Shown: piece after piece, positions 20,578 to 29,355 of the stretch | Layout of the letters: every line of letters starts with the position of its first letter | How positions within the stretch are numbered: position 1 is the first letter of the stretch | From: Micromonospora sp. WMMD980 | GTDB lineage: Bacteria > Actinomycetota > Actinomycetes > Mycobacteriales > Micromonosporaceae | Length of the DNA: 64,000 nt | NCBI RefSeq assembly: GCF_029626035.1 | Contig: NZ_JARUBE010000003.1 | Location: 3,472,001 to 3,536,000, forward strand | Reading direction: 5' to 3' | The notes under the pieces: model-generated | Databases searched by the model: none | What the model was told of the DNA's origin: nothing | What the model saw: only the letters and a program-made list of their open reading frames with translations | Position numbers and translations under genes: made by a program

Positions 20578-22326
20578 ATGACCGACGACCAGCTCGACGG
20601 GCCCGGCGAGGGTGTCGGCCGGGTGCTCGGCACCGCCGACGCCACCCCACTCACCTTCTGGACCGCCGTCGCACCGGGGAGCTACCTGCAACTCGACGAC
20701 GTGGTGGTGACCCGGCGCGAGCTGCCCGACCGCGAGCCGGTGACCATCGCCGGCGTGGTGACCCAGGTGCGCGCCCGGCACGAGGGGGCGCAGTTCGACT
20801 CCGACGTGTTCGCCATCGCCGACGGCACGCTGCCGGCGCAGGTGCAGGAGGCGGCCGAGGTCACCACCACCCGGGTCGACCCGGAGTTCTACGTCCCGCC
20901 CACCCCCGGCGCGGTGGTGCACCGGGCCGAGGGTGACGCCCGGGCCCGGGCGCTGCACTTCGACCGGATGGAGCGGCGGATCCCGATGGGGATGGGCCGC
21001 GACGGCGTGCCGGTCTACCTCAACGCCGACTTCCTCGACGGCACCCGGGGCGCGCACGTCTCCATCTCCGGCATCTCCGGCGTCGCCACCAAGACCAGCT
21101 TCGCCACCTTCCTGCTCTACTCGGTGTTCCGCTCCGGGGTGCTCGGCGGCGACGCGGTCAACGCCAAGGCGCTGATCTTCAACGTCAAGGGCGAGGACCT
21201 GCTCTTCCTCGACCACCCCAACAGCCGCCTCGACGACCCGACCCGCGCGGCGTACGCGAAGCTCGGCCTCGACGCCGGTGCGTTCCCCGACGTGCGGGTC
21301 TACGCCCCGCCCCGGGTCGGCGACTCCTCCGGCACGCCCGACGTGAGCAGCCGGCTCACCGGCGTCGACAGCTTCTACTGGACGCTCAGCGAGTTCTGCG
21401 CCGACCGCCTGCTCCCCTACGTGTTCGCCGACGCCGACGACGAGCGCCAGCAATACACCATGGTGGTCCACTCGGTCGCCGCCCACCTGGCCCGCCATGC
21501 CCAGCCCGCCGACGGCGGCGTGAGCATCGACGGGGTCCGCCTGGGCTCCTACGCCGACCTCGTCGACCACGTCGTCGAGCAGCTCAACGACGACGAGACC
21601 CGGGGCGAGTGGGCCGGCAGCGCGGTCGGGCTGGGCACGGTCAACGCCTTCGCCCGCCGGCTCATCGGCAGCAAGAAGGACCTGGGCCGGCTGATCCGCG
21701 GCGACCTGGCCGCCCGCCGGCCGCACTCCATCAACACGGCGGAGAGCGCCCAGGTCACCGTGGTCGACCTGCACAACCTGCCGGACCGCGCGCAGCGCTT
21801 CGTGGTCGGCGTGACGCTGAAGAGCGAGTTCGAGCGCAAGGAGAAGGCCGGCACCGCCAAGCCGTTGCTCTTCGTCGTGCTCGACGAGCTGAACAAGTAC
21901 GCCCCCCGCGAGGGTTCCTCCCCGATCAAGGAGGTGCTGCTCGACATCGCCGAGCGGGGCCGCTCGCTGGGGGTGATCCTGGTCGGCGCGCAGCAGACCG
22001 CGAGCGAGGTCGAGCGGCGGATTGTCACCAACTCGGCGATCCGGGTGGTGGGTCGGCTCGACCCGGCCGAGGCGTCCCGCCCGGAATACGGCTTCCTCCC
22101 GCCCGCCCAACGGCAGCGGGCGCTGCTGGCCAAGCCGGGCACCATGTTCGTCAACCAGCCCGACATCCCGGTGCCGCTCTGCCTGGAGTTCCCGTTCCCG
22201 GCGTGGGCCACCCGGGTCTCTGAGGCAGGCCGCCCGCCGTCGGAGACGCTACGGTCGATCACGCAGTCCGCCGATCCGTTCGCGGTGGTCGGCTCCGGCT
22301 CCTCCGACGACGACATCCCGTTCTAG
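20578..22326 (+). CDS. herA: HerA-type DNA translocase/ATPase
   Basis: This 582-residue protein has an N-terminal HAS-barrel-like region (about 10-100), a HerA/FtsK-type ATPase core and a C-terminal part with the arginine-rich VERRIVTNSAIRVVGRLD segment. The P-loop position (165-174) reads GISGVATKTS: the lysine and Thr-Ser are kept but the usual GK glycine is replaced by Thr, so this is a non-canonical Walker A. Walker B is LLFVVLDE at 430-437, followed by the GVILVGAQQTASEVE sensor strand. HerA hexamers translocate DNA and load the NurA nuclease. The next three genes are sbcD, sbcC and nurA, the same order as in archaea. A GGAG site precedes the ATG. Confidence 0.88.
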   Translation: MTDDQLDGPGEGVGRVLGTADATPLTFWTAVAPGSYLQLDDVVVTRRELPDREPVTIAGVVTQVRARHEGAQFDSDVFAIADGTLPAQVQEAAEVTTTRVDPEFYVPPTPGAVVHRAEGDARARALHFDRMERRIPMGMGRDGVPVYLNADFLDGTRGAHVSISGISGVATKTSFATFLLYSVFRSGVLGGDAVNAKALIFNVKGEDLLFLDHPNSRLDDPTRAAYAKLGLDAGAFPDVRVYAPPRVGDSSGTPDVSSRLTGVDSFYWTLSEFCADRLLPYVFADADDERQQYTMVVHSVAAHLARHAQPADGGVSIDGVRLGSYADLVDHVVEQLNDDETRGEWAGSAVGLGTVNAFARRLIGSKKDLGRLIRGDLAARRPHSINTAESAQVTVVDLHNLPDRAQRFVVGVTLKSEFERKEKAGTAKPLLFVVLDELNKYAPREGSSPIKEVLLDIAERGRSLGVILVGAQQTASEVERRIVTNSAIRVVGRLDPAEASRPEYGFLPPAQRQRALLAKPGTMFVNQPDIPVPLCLEFPFPAWATRVSEAGRPPSETLRSITQSADPFAVVGSGSSDDDIPF

Positions 22327-22338
22327 GCGGCACTCACC

Positions 22339-23487
22339 ATGAAGATCCTGCACACCTCCGACTGGCACGTCGGCAAGGTCCTCAAGGGGCAGTCCCGGGC
22401 CGAGGAGCACACGCAGGTCCTCGCCCAGGTGATCGACATCGCCCGCGACGAGCGGCCCGACCTGGTGATCGTCGCCGGCGACCTCTACGACACCGCCGCG
22501 CCGACGCCGGAGGCCACCCGGCTGGTCACCCGGGCGTTGACCGCGCTGCGCCGCACCGGCGCGGACGTGGTGGCGATCGGCGGCAACCACGACAACGGCG
22601 CGGCGCTCGACGCGCTGCGGCCCTGGGCCGACGCCGCCGGCATCACGCTGCGCGGCAGCGTCCGGGAGAGCCCGGCCGAGCACGTGGTCGACGGGGTGAC
22701 CCGCGACGGCGAGCGCTGGCAGGTGGCCGCGCTGCCGTTCCTGTCCCAGCGCTACGCCGTCCGCGCGGTGGAGATGTACGCGCTGACGCCGGCCGAGGCC
22801 AACCAGACCTACGCCGACCACCTGGGCCGGGTGCTCGACAAGCTGGCCGAGGGGTTCACCGAGCCGGATCGGGTACACCTGGTCACCGCCCACCTGACCG
22901 TGGTCGGTGCGAGCACCGGCGGCGGCGAGCGGGATGCGCACACCGTGCTCGGCTACGCGGTGCCGGCCACCGTCTTTCCGGGCAACGCGCACTACGTGGC
23001 GCTGGGCCACCTGCACCGCTCGCAGCGGGTCATCGGCCCCTGCCCGATCCGCTACAGCGGCAGCCCGCTCGCGGTCGACTTCGGCGAGCAGGAGAACGTC
23101 GGCTCGGTGACGGTCGTGGAGGTCACCGCCACCACGGCCGCGCGGGTCCGGGAGGTGCCGGTGCCCGGCGCGGTGCCGCTGCGCACCGTGCGCGGCACGC
23201 TCGCCCAGCTCGCCGAGGTCGAGCCGCCCGACGGGTGGCTGCGGGTCTTCGTCCGGGAGCAGCCCCGGGCCGGGCTGCGCGAGGAGGTGCAGGAGCTGCT
23301 CCCCCGCGCGTTGGAGATCCGGATCGACCCGGAGCTGATGCCGGCGCCGGGCAGCGGCACCCGCACCGCCCAGCGGGCCGGTCGTTCTCCACGCGAGTTG
23401 TTCGCCGACTATCTGGGCAGCCGCGGCCACGCCGACGAGGGCGTCCGGGAACTCTTCGACGAGTTGCTCGAGGAGGTCGAGCACTGA
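22339..23487 (+). CDS. sbcD: Exonuclease SbcD (Mre11-like)
   Basis: This 382-residue metallophosphoesterase shows all Mre11/SbcD motifs in order: HTSDWHVGK at 5-13, GDLYD near 51-55, GNHDN near 79-83, TAHL near 183-186 and LGHLHRSQ near 218-225, which together bind two manganese ions. With SbcC it forms the ATP-dependent nuclease that opens hairpins and processes DNA ends. It begins 12 bases after herA and overlaps sbcC by one base (TGATG), so expression is coupled. Confidence 0.95.
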   Translation: MKILHTSDWHVGKVLKGQSRAEEHTQVLAQVIDIARDERPDLVIVAGDLYDTAAPTPEATRLVTRALTALRRTGADVVAIGGNHDNGAALDALRPWADAAGITLRGSVRESPAEHVVDGVTRDGERWQVAALPFLSQRYAVRAVEMYALTPAEANQTYADHLGRVLDKLAEGFTEPDRVHLVTAHLTVVGASTGGGERDAHTVLGYAVPATVFPGNAHYVALGHLHRSQRVIGPCPIRYSGSPLAVDFGEQENVGSVTVVEVTATTAARVREVPVPGAVPLRTVRGTLAQLAEVEPPDGWLRVFVREQPRAGLREEVQELLPRALEIRIDPELMPAPGSGTRTAQRAGRSPRELFADYLGSRGHADEGVRELFDELLEEVEH

Positions 23488-25961
23488 TGCGGCCGATGCG
23501 GTTGGACATGGCCGGCTTCACCGTCTTCCGCGAGGAGACCACCGTCGACTTCACCGACGCCGACTTCTTCGCGCTCGTCGGCCCGACCGGCTCGGGCAAG
23601 TCCACGGTGCTCGACGCGATCTGCTTCGCGCTCTACGGCACGGTGCCCCGCTGGGGCGGCGCGCGGGGGCTGGCCAACGCGCTCGCGCCGTCGGCCACCG
23701 AGGCCCGGGTCCGGCTGGTCTTCGAGTCCGCCGGCGACCGCTACGTCGCCACCCGGGTGGTGCGCCGCGACGGCCGGGGCACGGTGAAGACGGCGAACGC
23801 CGGGCTCCAGCTCATGCCGCAGGGGTTCGACGTCACCAAGCTCGACACCGGGCTCAGCCCGGACGACCTGGGCGACGTGGTGGCCGGCACGCCGGCCGAG
23901 ATGGAACAGGCGGTGCTCGACGCGGTCGGGCTGCCCTACGAACAGTTCACCTCCTGCGTGGTGCTGCCGCAGGGGCAGTTCGCCGACTTCCTGCACGCCA
24001 AGCCGGCGACCCGCCAGCAGATCCTGGTCAACCTGCTCGGGCTGGGCGTCTACGAGGGCGTGCAGAAGAAGGCGGTGGAGCGCGCCGGACGGGCCGAGGC
24101 GAAGCTGGAGACGGTCGACAAGGTGCTCGGCGGCCTCGCCGACGTCGACGACGCGAGCCTGACCGACGCCCAGGGCCGGGTCGACGCGGTGCGGGAGCTG
24201 GCCGGGGCGGTCGAGGCGGCCGTACCAGAGCTGGAGCGCGCCCGGGCGACGGCGGGTGAGCGGGCGGCGGCGCTGGCCGACCTCGACGCCGAGCTGGGTG
24301 TGCTGGACGGGGTGCGGGCGCCGGAGGGCGTCGCCGAGCTGGCCCGGGCGGTGACCGCGGCCCGGGTGGCCGCCGACGAGGCGACCGCGGCGGTGGGGCT
24401 GGCCGAGGAACGGGAGGAGAAGCTCCGCGGCGAGCTGGCCGCGGCCGGCGACGAGAGCGCGTCACGGGTGCAACTGCGGGCGTACGCCGACCGGGAGCGG
24501 TTGACCGGCGAGGCGGCCACGGTCCGCGCGGCGGTCGACGCGGCGGCCGCCGAGCACGAGGCGGCGCTCGCGGCGCTCGCGGGCGCGCGGGCCGACGCCG
24601 AGCGGGCCGAGGTCGAGCTGGAGGCGGCGTTCCGGGCGCACGAGGAGGCCAAGGCGGCCGACCAGGCGGTGGCGCTGCGGGCGCACCTGGTCGACGGCGC
24701 GCCGTGCCCGGTGTGCGAGCAGGTGGTCGCCACCGTGCCCGCGATGCCGAAGGGCTCGGCGGTGAGCCGGGCGGTCGCGGCCGGCAAGGCGGCACGCGCG
24801 GCGAGCGAGGTCGCCAAGCGGGTGGTGACCGAGCGCGACGCCGCCGCCCGCGACCTGGACCGGGTGCTGTTGCGGGCGCGGGCCGAGCACGACGGGCTCG
24901 CCGCCCGGCTGGCCGAGCTGGACGGGCAGCTCGCCGACGCGCCCGCGCCGGACGCGCTGCGCGCGTCGCTGGCCGAGCACGCCCGGCTCCGGGCGGCGCT
25001 GGACGAGGCGGCCGGCGCGGTCCGGGCCGGCCGGGAGGCGGCCCGCCGGGCCCGCGGCACGCTCGACGGCGCGCAGGACCGGTTGCGCCGCGCCTGGCGC
25101 GAGTTCGACGCGGTCCGCGACGGGCTGGTCCGGTTCGGCCCGCCCGCCGCCGACCGCGACGACGTGGCCGGGGCCTGGGCGGCGCTGGCCGGCTGGGCGG
25201 GCGAGCAGGCCGACCGGCGACGGGCCGACCGGGCCGGGCTGGCCGACTCGGTCGAGGCGGCCGAGCGGGCGGCGGGCGAGGTCGCCGACCGGATCGGCGC
25301 GCTGTTCACCGCCGCCGGGCTGGACGCGCCGGCCGACCCGCTGCGCGACGTGGCGGTGGCGGTCGAACGGGCCGAGGCGGAGCTGCGCCGGCTCACCGAG
25401 CGCCGCGACCAGGCGACCGAGCTGCGCGAGCAGCGGTCCGGCCACGAGCGCGAGGCGCGGGTGGCACGGGCGCTCGCCGGGCACCTGCGGGCCAACAACT
25501 TCGAGCGGTGGCTGCTCACCGAGGCGCTGGACCTGCTCGTCGACGGCGCGTCGCGGATCCTGCGGGAGCTGTCCGGCGGGCAGTACGACCTGGTCCACGA
25601 CAAGGGAGAGTTCTTCGTCGTCGACCACCACGACGCGGGGCTGCGGCGCGGGGTGCGGACGCTGTCCGGCGGCGAGACGTTCCAGGCGTCGCTGGCGCTG
25701 GCGCTGGCGTTGTCGGAGCAGCTCGCGGGCATGTCGACGAGCGCGGCCAGCCTGGAGTCGATCGTGCTGGACGAGGGCTTCGGCACACTGGACGCGGCGA
25801 CGCTGGACACGGTCGCGGCCACGCTGGAGAACCTGGCCGCCCGGGGCGACCGGATGGTCGGCGTGGTCACCCACGTCCCGGCGCTCGCCGAGCGGATCCC
25901 GGTGCGCTTCGAGGTCCGCAAGGACGCCCGCACCGCGCGCATCGAGCGGACCGGCCTGTGA
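23487..25961 (+). CDS. sbcC: Exonuclease SbcC (Rad50-like)
   Basis: This 824-residue SMC-type ATPase has Walker A GPTGSGKST at 32-40, long Ala/Glu/Arg-rich coiled coils on both sides of a zinc hook CPVC (C407 and C410), and the ABC signature LSGGE at 726-730 followed by the Walker B VLDEGFGTLD. It dimerises through the hook and clamps DNA for SbcD. The ATG at 23487 is chosen because it shares a base with the sbcD stop and the conserved MRPMRLDMAGF start follows; the frame is open well upstream but only as a shadow of sbcD. It is shorter than E. coli SbcC, mostly in the coiled coils. Confidence 0.94.
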   Translation: MRPMRLDMAGFTVFREETTVDFTDADFFALVGPTGSGKSTVLDAICFALYGTVPRWGGARGLANALAPSATEARVRLVFESAGDRYVATRVVRRDGRGTVKTANAGLQLMPQGFDVTKLDTGLSPDDLGDVVAGTPAEMEQAVLDAVGLPYEQFTSCVVLPQGQFADFLHAKPATRQQILVNLLGLGVYEGVQKKAVERAGRAEAKLETVDKVLGGLADVDDASLTDAQGRVDAVRELAGAVEAAVPELERARATAGERAAALADLDAELGVLDGVRAPEGVAELARAVTAARVAADEATAAVGLAEEREEKLRGELAAAGDESASRVQLRAYADRERLTGEAATVRAAVDAAAAEHEAALAALAGARADAERAEVELEAAFRAHEEAKAADQAVALRAHLVDGAPCPVCEQVVATVPAMPKGSAVSRAVAAGKAARAASEVAKRVVTERDAAARDLDRVLLRARAEHDGLAARLAELDGQLADAPAPDALRASLAEHARLRAALDEAAGAVRAGREAARRARGTLDGAQDRLRRAWREFDAVRDGLVRFGPPAADRDDVAGAWAALAGWAGEQADRRRADRAGLADSVEAAERAAGEVADRIGALFTAAGLDAPADPLRDVAVAVERAEAELRRLTERRDQATELREQRSGHEREARVARALAGHLRANNFERWLLTEALDLLVDGASRILRELSGGQYDLVHDKGEFFVVDHHDAGLRRGVRTLSGGETFQASLALALALSEQLAGMSTSAASLESIVLDEGFGTLDAATLDTVAATLENLAARGDRMVGVVTHVPALAERIPVRFEVRKDARTARIERTGL

Positions 25962-26932
25962 CGCGGCCGGGACAGGCCCGGTTCTTCGTCGACTCGTGGG
26001 ATCCGGCCTACGGTGCGTCGTTCGAGGCCGCCGGCGGGACCGGGCCGGCGGCGCCGAGCAGCGCGCAGGTGGAGGCCGACGTCGAGCTGCCGGTCACCGA
26101 CTGGCGGGCGATCGACGTCCGCCCGGGCGTGCGGGCGCCGGACGTGGTGCTGCTCGTCGACGGGGTACGCCGGATCGACGCCAGCGTCTGGACGGCCGAG
26201 GAGGACGGCGGCTCGTTCCCCGGCATCGCCGCCTCGTACGCCGCCGGGGTGGTCCGCTGCGACCTGGACCGGGGCGCCGCCGAGCTGGCCGGGGCCCGGG
26301 TGGGGCGGGGGTTGTTCACCGCCAGCCCGTCGGCGCAGGACGTGGTGGCCGGCGCGATCCGTTACCCGGTGCACCGGGTCGGCGGCACCGGCGAGCTGAG
26401 CAAGCTGCCGGCCGCGGTGCAGGGCCCGCTCACCGCGCTGGAGGTGGCCGTCTCCGACGCGGTGCGCGCCGACGGCGACCTGCTGGTGGTGGACGGTCCG
26501 CTGCGCAGCCGGCGTAACCTGCCGCGCACCCTCGGCTACATCAAGACCCAGCACAGCCAGTATCTGGACGCCCGGCTCACCGCGGTGGTGACCGGGTTGG
26601 CGCCGGGTCAGCGCTGCCCGGTGTTCCGGCTGGGCACGGCGTGGGGCGGCTGGTCCTGGTATCTGCGACTGCCGGTGGCCGCCGGGGCGCCCTGGGCGGG
26701 CATCGTGCGGATGGAGTGCTCGGCCGACCTGACCGTGCCGGAGGCGATCGCGCTGGCCGACCTGTCGCTGGTCACGCTGCCCCGGTTCGCGTCCACGCCG
26801 TACAAGGACCCGCGCGCCCCGCAGAACCTGGTGCCGATCGCCGGGCTGGAACGCCGGCTGCGCGGGATGCTCGGCGACGCGCGGCTGCTGCACCGGGTGC
26901 TCACCTCGGCGGCGCGCGGGATCCGGCGCTGA
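25958..26932 (+). CDS. nurA: NurA domain nuclease
   Basis: This 324-residue protein fits the NurA 5'-3' nuclease family: an early DVVLLVDGVRRIDASVW strand carrying the DxG metal site (about 61-77), a second acidic strand LLVVDGPL (about 172-179), the GYIKTQHSQYL segment, a WSWYLRLP strand, and a C-terminal VTLPRFASTPYKDPRAPQN motif like the conserved Pro-Arg-Ala end of NurA. NurA works with HerA to resect DNA ends. It overlaps sbcC by GTGA and the next gene by TGATG. The family call rests on these motifs plus the operon context with HerA and SbcCD. Confidence 0.8.
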   Translation: MTRPGQARFFVDSWDPAYGASFEAAGGTGPAAPSSAQVEADVELPVTDWRAIDVRPGVRAPDVVLLVDGVRRIDASVWTAEEDGGSFPGIAASYAAGVVRCDLDRGAAELAGARVGRGLFTASPSAQDVVAGAIRYPVHRVGGTGELSKLPAAVQGPLTALEVAVSDAVRADGDLLVVDGPLRSRRNLPRTLGYIKTQHSQYLDARLTAVVTGLAPGQRCPVFRLGTAWGGWSWYLRLPVAAGAPWAGIVRMECSADLTVPEAIALADLSLVTLPRFASTPYKDPRAPQNLVPIAGLERRLRGMLGDARLLHRVLTSAARGIRR

Positions 26933-27789
26933 TGGGCCGGCGGCGCGACGCCGACCGGATGGCGGCGGACGTGGACACCGGCCGGGCCGAGCTGGTGCCG
27001 GACCGGGACCGACCCCGCTCGTGGACGCTGCTGCTGGACGGCGCGCCGCAGTCGCACGTGGACCTGGCCGATCCGACGCATCTGGAGTTCGAGTACGTCC
27101 GCCGGCTGGCCGCCGCGCTCGACCTGGTGGCGCCCGCCGGCACACCGCTGCGGGTGCTGCACCTGGGCGGCGGCGCGCTCACCCTGCCCCGCTACGTCCA
27201 GGCCACCCGGCCCGGCTCGACGCAGCGGGTGTCCGAGGTGGACGGCGCGCTGGTGGAGCTGGTTCGGCGGGAGTTGCCCTGGCCGTCCGACCCCCGGCTG
27301 CGGGTGCGGGTGGCCGACGCCCGGGCCACGCTGTCGTCCAGCCGCGACGGCGGGTACGACGTGATCGTCGCGGACGTGTTCGCCGGCGCCCGCACGCCCG
27401 CCCACCTGACCTCGGTGGAGTACGCCGCCGAGGTGGCCCGGGTGCTGGCGCCCGACGGCTGTTACCTGGCGAACGTGGCCGACGGCCCGCCGCTGCGGCA
27501 CGCCCGCGGGCAGGTCGCCACCGTGCGTACCGTGCTGCCCCGGGCGTGCCTGGTGGGCGACGCGGCGGTGCTGCGCGGCCGGCGCTACGGCAACCTGGTG
27601 CTGGTGGCGTCCCGGGTGGAGCCGCCGGTGCCGGAGCTGGCCCGACGCGCGGCCGGCGACTGGTTCCCCGGTCGGGTGGTGGCCGGTGACGAGCTGGACC
27701 GGTTCGCCGGCGGGTTGCCGGTGGTGCGCGACGCGGACGCCGTCGACTCCACGCCACCGCCGCCAGGAATTTTTTCCGTCAAACGTTGA
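26932..27789 (+). CDS. Spermidine-synthase-like protein
   Basis: This 285-residue protein has the Rossmann fold of the spermidine synthase family: VLHLGGGALTLPRY (about 64-77), an acidic strand-two residue in VSEVDGALVELVRREL, VADARATL, and the DVIVADVFAGARTPAHLTS active-site region. It lacks the N-terminal membrane region of fused forms and some catalytic-site residues cannot be verified, so it may be a methyltransferase-like relative rather than a true aminopropyltransferase. It shares a TGATG overlap with nurA and is the last gene of the herA operon. A link to DNA repair is only positional. Confidence 0.75.
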   Translation: MGRRRDADRMAADVDTGRAELVPDRDRPRSWTLLLDGAPQSHVDLADPTHLEFEYVRRLAAALDLVAPAGTPLRVLHLGGGALTLPRYVQATRPGSTQRVSEVDGALVELVRRELPWPSDPRLRVRVADARATLSSSRDGGYDVIVADVFAGARTPAHLTSVEYAAEVARVLAPDGCYLANVADGPPLRHARGQVATVRTVLPRACLVGDAAVLRGRRYGNLVLVASRVEPPVPELARRAAGDWFPGRVVAGDELDRFAGGLPVVRDADAVDSTPPPPGIFSVKR

Positions 27790-27997
27790 TCCGATCGGCG
27801 GACCGGTGCGTATCCCCGGGCGGCCATGCCCGTGGGGGGCCGGCTGATGTCATTGGACACCGGAGGTCTGCATGCATGCGGTGGCGGCCGGCTGGCACGG
27901 CGAGGTGGCGAGGCCCGAGTGGATGTTCGCCCGGGCACAGCCGCACTCGCGCGCGTCGCGCTCGACCCGGGGGGTCGACGCGCGTCCCGCCGATCGC

Positions 27998-28003
27998 CAG
28001 AAT
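27998..28003 (+). promoter_or_regulatory. -10 element of the sigma factor gene
   Basis: CAGAAT ends 6 nt before GTG 28010, matching the leaderless spacing seen throughout the window. It argues for GTG 28010 rather than the ATG at 27872 as the start of the sigma factor. Confidence 0.55.
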
Positions 28004-28009
28004 GACCCG

Positions 28010-28573
28010 GTGCCGCCCCCGCGACCCGCACCCGGCCGCCACCAGGCGACCTCCGCCGAGGCCAGTCACTCGGACCAGCTGATCCGCCTGCTCTACGCCG
28101 AACACGCCGGCCCGCTGCTGATGTTCGTGATGCGGCTGACCGGTGGGGACCGGCAGCGCGCCGAGGACATCGTGCAGGAGACGCTGCTGCGGGCCTGGCG
28201 CAACGCGCACCGTCTCGGCGGGCCGGGCCAGGGTTCGCTGCGGCCGTGGCTGGTCACGGTGGCCCGGCGGATCGCCATCGACGAGCACCGCAGTGAGCAG
28301 GCCCGCCCGGCGGAGACGTACGACCGGGACCTGACCGCGTTCGCCGAGTCGGACAGCACCGACCGGGTGCTGCGCACGATGACCGTGGCGGACGCGCTGC
28401 GTACCCTGAGCCAGTCGCACCGGGAGATCCTGGTGGCGACGTACTTCCGCGGTCGGACCGTGCCCGAGGCGGCGGAGGAGCTGGGCCTTCCGCTCGGCAC
28501 CGCCAAGTCCCGGGTCTACTACGCGCTGCGCGCGCTGCGCACCGCTCTGCAGGAGAGGGGGGTGACGGAATGA
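28010..28573 (+). CDS. ECF RNA polymerase sigma factor
   Basis: This 187-residue sigma-70 family factor contains only regions 2 and 4. Region 2 includes LLMFVMRLTGGDRQRAEDIV and the -10-recognition helix LLRAWRNAHRL; region 4 is LRTLSQSHREILVATYF with the helix-turn-helix GRTVPEAAEELGLPLGTAKS. An upstream in-frame ATG at 27872 would add 46 residues of low-complexity sequence, so GTG 28010 with its -10 hexamer is preferred. The anti-sigma gene follows with an ATGA overlap, so the two are made in balance. The regulated genes are not known; the adjacent secreted lipoprotein gene is a candidate. It resembles the SigL/SigK groups of mycobacteria. Confidence 0.9.
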   Translation: MPPPRPAPGRHQATSAEASHSDQLIRLLYAEHAGPLLMFVMRLTGGDRQRAEDIVQETLLRAWRNAHRLGGPGQGSLRPWLVTVARRIAIDEHRSEQARPAETYDRDLTAFAESDSTDRVLRTMTVADALRTLSQSHREILVATYFRGRTVPEAAEELGLPLGTAKSRVYYALRALRTALQERGVTE

Positions 28574-29355
28574 GCCGGGCCGACCACATGGACGTCGCCG
28601 CGTATGCGCTCGGCGTGCTGGACGCACAGGACGCCGAGCGGTTCGAGGAGCACCTGGCCACCTGCTGGGCGTGTGCGGCGGAACTGGAGACGATGGTGCC
28701 GGTGGTGGGGATGCTCGCCGACATCGACGGCGAGTCGATGGCCGCGCTGGAGCAGACGCACACCGATCCGGCGCTGCTGGACCGGACGCTGGTGTCGGTG
28801 CGGCGGGACCGCCGGCGTACCCGGGTGCGGCAGTTGCTCGCCACCGCGGCGGCGGTCGTCGTGTTCGGTGGCCTGAGCGCTGTCGCGGCCGGGTTCCTCG
28901 GCGGCGAGGCGCCGTCGACGCCGCAGGCCGGGCCGACGCGGAGTGTGCCCACCGCGGCGCCGAGCAGCACCACCCCGACCGACCCGAACCGGCCGGGCCT
29001 GGGCGGTGACCGGGAGATCGAGGGTGACGAGCACAATGCCACCGACCCGGGCACCGGTGTGAAGACCACGATGTGGCTGGCGAAGAAGGAGTACGGCACC
29101 CAGATCAGCCTGCAACTGAACCGGCTACCGGGTCCGCGCACCTGCCGGCTGCTGGTGGTGCGCAAGAACGCCACCAGCGAGGTGGTCGGCACGTGGTCGG
29201 TGCCGGGCAGCGGCTACGGCACCAACCAGAACCCGCTCGGGTTGGAGCTGACCGCGTCCACCTCGGCCCCGCTGGGTGACATCGCGAAGGTCCAGGTGCA
29301 GTCGGTGGACGTCAACGGGGTGGCGAGCCCGCTGGTGACGGTCGCCGACCTCTGA
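28570..29355 (+). CDS. Zinc-finger anti-sigma factor
   Basis: The 261-residue protein begins with a cytoplasmic zinc-binding anti-sigma domain with H28, C32 and C35 in the HxxxCxxC pattern. A membrane helix follows at about 95-115 (ATAAAVVVFGGLSAVAAGF), then a Thr/Pro-rich linker and an extracellular beta-rich domain (about 160-260) that may sense an envelope signal. It overlaps the sigma factor gene by 4 bases and should hold that factor inactive at the membrane. A strong terminator follows. Confidence 0.9.
   Translation: MSRADHMDVAAYALGVLDAQDAERFEEHLATCWACAAELETMVPVVGMLADIDGESMAALEQTHTDPALLDRTLVSVRRDRRRTRVRQLLATAAAVVVFGGLSAVAAGFLGGEAPSTPQAGPTRSVPTAAPSSTTPTDPNRPGLGGDREIEGDEHNATDPGTGVKTTMWLAKKEYGTQISLQLNRLPGPRTCRLLVVRKNATSEVVGTWSVPGSGYGTNQNPLGLELTASTSAPLGDIAKVQVQSVDVNGVASPLVTVADL

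What the first reader, a model, noticed from the sequence alone, without database searches (positions are those of the whole stretch)
20578..27789. Bacterial herA-sbcD-sbcC-nurA operon mirrors the archaeal HerA-Mre11-Rad50-NurA end-resection cluster
Four overlapping or near-touching genes encode a HerA-like ATPase, Mre11-like SbcD, Rad50-like SbcC and a NurA-motif nuclease in the order known from archaeal resection operons. Bacteria usually resect with RecBCD/AddAB/AdnAB and keep sbcDC alone. A complete four-part set in an actinomycete suggests an alternative end-resection machine, with a spermidine-synthase-like protein as a possible fifth member.
Basis: partly seen in the sequence, partly recalled or inferred. 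Interest (0 to 1): 0.75.

Follow-up and report, generated by a model that had tools for sequence, protein, structure and literature searches.

The report
Bacterial HerA-SbcD-SbcC-NurA DNA-end operon
A soil bacterium carries, as one gene block, four proteins that together resemble the DNA-break trimming machine of archaea; the block is real and kept in many related bacteria, and this bacterium has its usual break-trimming enzyme as well.

Summary
Window 20578-26932 encodes HerA, SbcD, SbcC and NurA, 12 nt apart or overlapping by 1-4 bases. HerA and NurA, which Pfam misses, match the solved Deinococcus radiodurans pair: HerA E=8e-149; NurA 3e-20 alone, 4e-56 as a family profile. Motifs are intact. 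HerA occurs in 121 of 121 sampled genomes of the window's family. In 396 genomes of the phylum, 63 of 65 with strong HerA also have NurA, and no genome has NurA alone. Two gene orders, HerA-first and NurA-first, match clades in most gene trees. Linkage of HerA is tight in 42 of 62 phylum loci, looser or unseen in the rest. The four genes also lie on three plasmids of other bacteria. The parts are Deinococcus-type HerA/NurA and bacterial SbcCD. Most likely an accessory DNA-end-processing machine; function is inferred. With a published bacterial precedent (Oceanithermus, PMC5448004), this is a new member of a known kind.

The parts
20578..22326 (+). herA: hexameric-translocase-type ATPase of the Deinococcus HerA kind (582 aa); variant P-loop GISGVATKT at residues 165-173, Walker B DELNKY at 436-441
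   Evidence: E=8.2e-149 to HerA 7f6d_B alone, 2.2e-193 as profile A2; K172, T173, D436, E437 invariant in 51 sequences
22339..23487 (+). sbcD: bacterial-type Mre11 nuclease (382 aa); phosphoesterase motifs SDWH, GDLYD, GNHD, GHLH
   Evidence: NCBIfam SbcD 2.3e-53 versus archaeal Mre11 4.7e-14; motifs; the only SbcD match at E<=1e-15 among the 24 of 36 candidates scored in this genome
23487..25961 (+). sbcC: bacterial-type Rad50 ATPase (824 aa) with Walker A, CPVC zinc-hook motif, LSGGE signature, Walker B
   Evidence: NCBIfam sbcc 2e-79 versus best archaeal Rad50 8e-21; motifs
25958..26932 (+). nurA: nuclease of the bacterial NurA type (324 aa); D68, E162, D179, K196 invariant in the family
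   Evidence: E=3.2e-20 to NurA 7f6d_H alone; profile A1 3.8e-56 to 7f6d_H and 3e-23 to T. maritima TM1739; 38 of 58 family members reach Pfam NurA at E<=1, best 2e-6, the window's own protein does not
26932..27789 (+). spermidine-synthase-like (MFS_SpdSyn subfamily) gene overlapping the nurA stop by one base; local neighbour, not a conserved member
   Evidence: NCBIfam NF037959 6.4e-30; at this place in 3 of 62 phylum loci and 26 of 64 long enough named loci of the family and close kin

Best explanation
[quoted passage not shown] Proposed working: SbcCD recognises and clips blocked, hairpin or protein-bound ends. A HerA hexamer capped by a NurA dimer then loads on the end, pumps the duplex with ATP, and NurA cuts, preferentially leaving a 3' tail for RecA. 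It works beside AdnAB, as an accessory or damage-specific route, not in its place. Shown here: identity of the four proteins, intact catalytic motifs, conserved linkage (tight in the window's family and in the NurA-first form), co-occurrence of HerA with NurA, two gene orders that follow most gene trees, and presence of AdnAB in the same genome. Inferred: co-transcription, physical HerA-NurA-SbcCD cooperation, strand polarity, damage role.
For: Matches to the solved HerA-NurA complex 7f6d (named as D. radiodurans in PMC9960219). Catalytic residues conserved. Outside the class, 60 of 62 strong-HerA genomes have NurA and 60 of 60 NurA genomes have HerA. HerA within 400 bases of sbcD in 42 of 62 phylum loci, and SbcC next to NurA within 400 bases in 30 of 31 HerA-first loci. 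HerA-first order in 64 of 64 long enough named loci and in 13 of 13 readable loci of two other families of the class. HerA in 121 of 121 family genomes. Clades match gene order for HerA, NurA and SbcC. Ku in 3 of the 120 flanking proteins of NurA-first loci; of these, Ku was located in L060, with an ATP-dependent DNA ligase beside it, and in L070. Published end-resection activity of the Deinococcus pair (PMC9960219, passages).
Against: No expression, interaction or activity data. D. radiodurans HerA-NurA is reported to contribute little to radiation resistance (PMC4663267, passages). For the archaeal T. kodakarensis complex the authors doubt a resection role and suggest an antiviral one (PMC12977600, passages). 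The four genes are also on plasmids, in two of three read cases beside defence-like genes. AdnAB is present. Linkage of HerA is not tight everywhere: in 10 of the 62 phylum loci it lies 0.7-4.3 kb from sbcD, and in 9 it is not in the stretch read; it then lies about 5-14 kb away on the same contig (4 loci) or on another contig of a draft genome (5 loci). Motif conservation among loci is high but not complete (SbcC Walker A 62 of 66, one SbcD motif pattern 52 of 72). No LexA- or PafBC-like box in the short forms tried in 400 bases upstream. PADLOC gives MADS-component matches for SbcC (mad3, 2.5e-26), HerA (mad8, 2.8e-8) and the SpeE-like protein (mad2, 1.4e-8), which I take as superfamily matches.
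Confidence: 0.7

Rival explanations
1. A defence or plasmid-control system: the HerA-NurA motor nuclease with SbcCD degrades incoming linear or replicating foreign dsDNA. The chromosomal copies are domesticated.
For: On plasmids the genes sit beside TIGR02680/TIGR02678/DUF2397 genes (recalled as Wadjet components) and ImmA/IrrE in Streptomyces, and near TIR and HEPN-domain genes in Chloroflexota. HerA homologues form defence complexes with other nucleases (PMC12977600 passages; PMC11291478 search listing only). Weak MADS-model matches. Distribution outside the class is patchy: 62 of 336 genomes. Flanks of chromosomal copies do contain PADLOC matches at E<=1e-15: 16 families in 120 proteins and 79 families in 137 (25 shown, among them DrmD, type II methyltransferase and GajB-type helicase models).
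Against: Present in 121 of 121 sampled family genomes. In the PADLOC scans all but one of the listed families are matched by a single protein, so no defence family recurs. The most frequent Pfam families in the flanks (25 shown of 112 and of 166) are transporters, metabolic enzymes, sigma factors and kinases, and Ku. Of 8 neighbours scanned in the window none has a defence family by Pfam; one is a 'plasmid pRiA4b ORF-3-like' protein and one has no match.
Confidence: 0.2
2. A replacement for RecBCD/AddAB/AdnAB-type resection.
For: 13 of 62 HerA-positive genomes outside the class show no PDDEXK_1 gene with a frame of 950 codons or more in the listed rows (list cut), so it may serve this role in some deep lineages.
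Against: AdnAB present here. AdnB nuclease-domain matches in all 60 class-level genomes of the draw. Long-frame PDDEXK_1 genes in 49 of 62 HerA-positive and 45 of 70 HerA-negative genomes outside the class, both lower bounds.
Confidence: 0.06
3. The four genes share an operon only by old linkage, and HerA-NurA and SbcCD act separately.
For: In Deinococcus HerA-NurA are reported not to be clustered with Mre11-Rad50 genes (PMC8708640, passages). HerA is apart from sbcD in 10, and unseen in 9, of 62 phylum loci.
Against: SbcC and NurA stay adjacent in 30 of 31 HerA-first loci, and NurA and HerA within 200 bases in 30 of 30 NurA-first loci, with sbcD within 400 bases of herA in 28 of those 30. SbcD matches in 20 of 20 HerA-positive but 4 of 20 HerA-negative genomes outside the class (distant SbcD would be missed by this query).
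Confidence: 0.15

Closest known systems
Deinococcus radiodurans HerA-NurA (PDB 7f6d)
   Same: Same protein types, same variant P-loop region, NurA acidic motifs aligned
   Different: There the pair is reported not to be clustered with Mre11-Rad50 genes (PMC8708640, passages)
Archaeal herA-mre11-rad50-nurA operon (Sulfolobus and others)
   Same: Same four functions in one cluster (PMC4351679, PMC2288612, PMC8708640, passages)
   Different: Parts are bacterial-type: the HerA profile reaches the T. kodakarensis HerA (9x1l, identified) only at E=0.0025, against 2e-193 for Deinococcus HerA; the NurA profile lists no third NurA structure at E<=10; SbcC and SbcD score far better against bacterial models; AdnAB coexists
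Oceanithermus profundus hepA cluster with sbcD-sbcC downstream
   Same: Published bacterial precedent of HerA (HepA) followed by SbcD and SbcC (PMC5448004, passages)
   Different: One species of Thermales, where it is read as recruitment of SbcCD; here in the sampled whole of a family and in two orders in Actinomycetota, and on plasmids of Cyanobacteriota and Chloroflexota
Anti-phage HerA systems (HerA with Sir2 or DUF4297)
   Same: HerA-superfamily hexamer with a partner nuclease (PMC12977600, passages)
   Different: Only weak matches to PADLOC HerA models (best 5.5e-6) and a different nuclease

Membership tests
Deinococcus-type HerA | Full-length similarity including HAS barrel and RecA core | tested here: met
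   E=8.2e-149 over residues 9-550; HAS-barrel Pfam reached at E<=1 by 10 of 51 family members, best 1.7e-4, not by the window protein
Deinococcus-type HerA | ATPase residues: P-loop Lys/Thr and Walker B Asp/Glu | tested here: met
   K172, T173, D436, E437 invariant in 51 sequences
Deinococcus-type HerA | Hexameric ring that translocates DNA | not testable with these tools
   needs purified protein
Bacterial NurA | Family similarity to solved NurA | tested here: met
   7f6d_H 3.8e-56 and 1zup 3e-23 with profile A1; the Pfam NurA model misses the window protein itself
Bacterial NurA | Acidic catalytic residues and active-site lysine (D58, E116, D133, K202 in S. islandicus, PMC4351679 passages) | tested here: met
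   D68, E162, D179, K196 invariant in 58 sequences and aligned in 7f6d_H and 1zup. One-to-one match with the Sulfolobus residues is inferred, since no archaeal sequence was aligned
Bacterial NurA | RNase H-like fold | tested here: inconclusive
   the predicted model was poor (mean pLDDT 49) and was not compared with any library
Bacterial SbcCD | SbcD phosphoesterase motifs; SbcC Walker, signature and zinc-hook motifs | tested here: met
Archaeal HerA-Mre11-Rad50-NurA operon | Four genes in one cluster | tested here: met
Archaeal HerA-Mre11-Rad50-NurA operon | Archaeal-type component proteins | tested here: not met
Archaeal HerA-Mre11-Rad50-NurA operon | Co-transcription and 5'-3' end resection | not testable with these tools
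   needs RNA and biochemistry
HerA-type anti-phage defence systems | HerA of a defence family with Sir2 or DUF4297 partner | tested here: not met
   weak PADLOC HerA matches only; no PADLOC family for the NurA partner

The most novel reading that the evidence does not exclude
The gene set is an ancient bacterial four-part end-processing machine, inherited as a unit with a single rearrangement of gene order, spread over several bacterial phyla partly by plasmids. It did not arise as a late archaeal gift to Deinococcus-Thermus (the view cited in PMC12977600), and in actinomycetes it is a second dedicated resection route running in parallel with AdnAB.
Probability: 0.3. Interest if true: 0.72.

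Novelty: new member of a known kind. Interest (0 to 1): 0.52.

Why it matters
A 2023 paper states that bacterial NurA-HerA occurs in only a few bacteria such as Deinococcus-Thermus, which lack RecBCD (PMC9960219, passages). Here HerA is in every sampled genome of a family of culturable soil bacteria, and in the window's genome it is tied to SbcCD and NurA in a genome with AdnAB. That gives a mesophilic bacterium in which the disputed job of HerA-NurA (resection or foreign-DNA destruction) and its link with Mre11-Rad50 can be tested by gene removal. Standard annotation half hides it: Pfam misses both window proteins, and the listed NurA homologues are mostly 'hypothetical protein', though at least 16 of the 120 listed bear the UniRef name 'NurA domain-containing protein'.

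Tried and rejected
Direct Pfam, NCBIfam and PADLOC scans of the window proteins left NurA without any hit and HerA with weak ones, and the Pfam NurA search of the genome was empty. This would have wrongly refuted the finding; comparison with solved structures settled it. The spermidine-synthase-like gene was rejected as a member. Replacement of AdnAB was rejected for this genome. The structure prediction of NurA from close relatives only was poor (mean pLDDT 49) and is not used. Promoter scan and LexA/PafBC-like motif scan of the upstream region gave nothing; only short exact forms of the two boxes were tried.

Rows dropped: five of the 67 places (partial or weak matches) were not fetched, so 62 loci were read. 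Eight genomes with a weaker HerA match (E 2e-39 to 8e-31, 30-33% identity, all of one family, none with NurA) were left out of the co-occurrence count. Trees used only sequences covering at least 75% of the profile. L219, HerA alone with 6.2 kb downstream, is a real exception that one search counted as short. The Hfirst/Nfirst label was also given to 8 loci where HerA was not in the stretch, from the SbcC-NurA order. NurA-first SbcD sequences did not form one clade in the unrooted tree. Flanking proteins longer than 900 codons were left out of the scans, and which protein matched which family is not shown by them.

9x1l is T. kodakarensis HerA, at E=0.0025.

The older papers on the FtsK-HerA superfamily, the archaeal herA cluster and the Deinococcus HerA-NurA genetics are not held, so earlier notice of this operon in them cannot be excluded. 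Literature searches. None of the listings or passages that I saw describes the four-gene operon in Actinomycetota; PMC8708640 (passages) does say that NurA and HerA homologues occur in Actinobacteria, Cyanobacteria and Firmicutes.
Full report
OBSERVATION. The HerA stop is followed after 12 nt by sbcD. The sbcD stop and sbcC start share one base (TGATG), sbcC and nurA overlap by four, and nurA and the spermidine-synthase-like gene share one base. The window lies in a 6.8-Mb genome whose nearest NurA proteins are from Micromonospora (120 listed of 3229).

IDENTITY. Pfam, NCBIfam and PADLOC nearly miss the first and fourth proteins. Comparison with solved structures does not. The HerA protein alone matches HerA 7f6d_B at 8.2e-149, and a 51-member family profile at 2.2e-193, with the next structure at 1e-5 and the archaeal T. 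kodakarensis HerA (9x1l) at 0.0025. The NurA protein alone matches NurA 7f6d_H at 3.2e-20; a 58-member profile gives 3.8e-56, and 3e-23 to T. maritima TM1739; the only other match is an unrelated phosphatase at 0.008. 7f6d is the D. radiodurans complex (PMC9960219, passages). 38 of 58 NurA members and 10 of 51 HerA members reach the Pfam NurA and HAS-barrel models at E<=1. NurA residues D68, E162, D179 and K196 are invariant in the 58 and aligned in both solved proteins; they correspond in kind to the D, E, D and K reported as critical in Sulfolobus NurA (PMC4351679, passages), a residue-by-residue match being inferred. HerA K172, T173, D436 and E437 are invariant in 51. SbcD and SbcC carry their motifs and are of bacterial type. 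Over the loci the motif patterns are found in 63 of 65 HerA, 62 to 66 of 66 SbcC, and 72 of 72 SbcD sequences for three patterns but 52 of 72 for a fourth.

CONSERVATION. In 396 genomes drawn over the phylum NurA occurs in 63. HerA occurs in 73 at E<=1e-30, of which 65 are strong. Among 336 genomes outside the class, 62 have strong HerA and 60 of these have NurA; all 60 NurA genomes have HerA. Of 67 NurA places I read 62 loci: SbcC in 60, SbcD in 59, HerA in 53 (several contigs are short). Two orders occur: HerA-SbcD-SbcC-NurA and NurA-HerA-SbcD-SbcC. The NurA-first form is tight: NurA and HerA are within 200 bases in 30 of 30 loci, and HerA and SbcD within 400 bases in 28 of 30. The HerA-first form outside the class is looser: of 31 HerA-first loci, three of them of the window's genus, HerA is within 400 bases of sbcD in 14, 0.7-3.9 kb away in 9, and not in the stretch in 8, while SbcC-NurA is within 400 bases in 30 of 31. 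With 14 further loci from two other families of the class the tally is 44 HerA-first, 30 NurA-first and 2 undetermined; 13 of the 14 show all four genes and the fourteenth contig ends after SbcD. In the window's family HerA is in 121 of 121 genomes and 38 of 38 genera, in two of them in two pieces. In the class draw it is in 17 of 295 genomes, 5 of 102 genera. Of 80 named loci of the family and close kin, 64 are long enough and all 64 have the HerA-first order, in two with a gap of over 2 kb (L217, L222); of 16 short ones, 14 agree as far as they reach, L174 ends after HerA, and L219 is an exception. In unrooted trees, HerA-first and NurA-first loci separate without error for HerA (support 0.80), NurA (0.999) and SbcC (1.0); HerA-first SbcD is one clade (1.0), but NurA-first SbcD is not.

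SETTING. The spermidine-synthase-like gene follows in 3 of 62 loci and 26 of 64, so it is local. The genome has an AdnA-AdnB pair. All 60 class-level genomes of the draw match the AdnB nuclease domain at E<=1e-8; that none is missing is read from the list of non-matches, which is sorted by kinship and begins outside the class. Outside the class, frames of 950 codons or more with a PDDEXK_1 domain were counted by me from the listed rows in 49 of 62 HerA-positive and 45 of 70 HerA-negative genomes (70 drawn at random of 266); both lists are cut, so these are lower bounds. Hence no general replacement. The operon's SbcD is the only SbcD match in this genome at the threshold used (24 of 36 candidates scored). 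Matches to a second SbcD, some in pieces, exist in 10 of 14 HerA-positive genomes of other families in the class. SbcD matches occur in 14 of 21 HerA-negative class genomes (30-38% identity), and in 20 of 20 HerA-positive and 4 of 20 HerA-negative genomes outside the class (78 genomes chosen by me).

WIDER SPREAD AND RIVAL. The four genes also lie together on a Streptomyces plasmid (HerA-first), a conjugative cyanobacterial plasmid and a chloroflexote plasmid (both NurA-first). A Nonomuraea record that PLSDB lists as a plasmid, but which is 11.9 Mb long, also has them. HerA matched 6 of 72,556 plasmid records. The Streptomyces and chloroflexote copies have defence-like neighbours, which keeps a defence role open. 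In the flanks of chromosomal copies the most frequent Pfam families are transporters, enzymes and regulators (25 shown of 112 and of 166). PADLOC families at E<=1e-15 number 16 and 79, each listed one matched by a single protein except one by two. Ku is in 3 of 120 flanking proteins of NurA-first loci; L060 has Ku plus a DNA ligase and L070 has Ku (the third was not located). HerA relatives in phage records and viral contigs are distant, 24-29%; of the four viral contigs two have a weak NurA match and one a weak SbcD match.

MECHANISM. Published work on D. radiodurans describes a HerA hexamer with a NurA dimer that moves along duplex DNA and digests the 5' tail (PMC9960219, passages). In Sulfolobus acidocaldarius Mre11 is reported to interact with HerA (PMC2288612, title and passages). 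By homology the present operon should do the same with SbcCD as the end-clipping partner. This is inference. Against it stand the small radiation effect in Deinococcus (PMC4663267, passages) and the doubt about resection and proposed antiviral role in T. kodakarensis (PMC12977600, passages).

KNOWN OR NEW. A 2021 review says NurA and HerA homologues occur in Actinobacteria among others (PMC8708640, passages), another paper names a few bacteria (PMC4641729, passages), and O. profundus is reported to have SbcD and SbcC downstream of HerA (PMC5448004, passages). UniRef already names at least 16 of the 120 listed homologues 'NurA domain-containing protein'. So the kind is known. What I did not find in the searches is the four-gene operon in Actinomycetota, its constancy in this family beside AdnAB, and its two orders. 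Key older papers are not held.

Noticed in passing
L261 (NZ_CP134205.1 411736-431388), L264 (NZ_CP128402.1 17065-34765): Plasmid-borne copies of the gene set sit beside ImmA/IrrE metallopeptidase genes and defence-like genes; an IrrE-type protease might control them in a damage-dependent way.
   Followed up: partly
L060:7062-8833, L070:8035-8850: Ku, and in L060 also an ATP-dependent DNA ligase, lie next to the NurA-first operon, putting end joining and end processing side by side.
   Followed up: partly
G281 (L082, L086): One genome carries both a HerA-first and a NurA-first copy of the gene set.
   Followed up: no
G657 and G662: In two family genomes the HerA match is split into two pieces, possibly frameshifts or assembly errors.
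   Followed up: no
window 27872-29355: ECF-type sigma factor followed by a zinc-finger anti-sigma-like protein directly downstream of the five genes.
   Followed up: no
L257-L260 and KP836355.1: Distant HerA relatives of this type occur in viral contigs and in Marinitoga camini virus 1; two of the four viral contigs (L258, L260) have a weak NurA match just upstream.
   Followed up: partly
genomes of family label f20 (G011, G041, G062, G084, G106, G115, G125, G200): A weaker HerA relative (30-33% identity) occurs without a NurA match; partner unknown.
   Followed up: no
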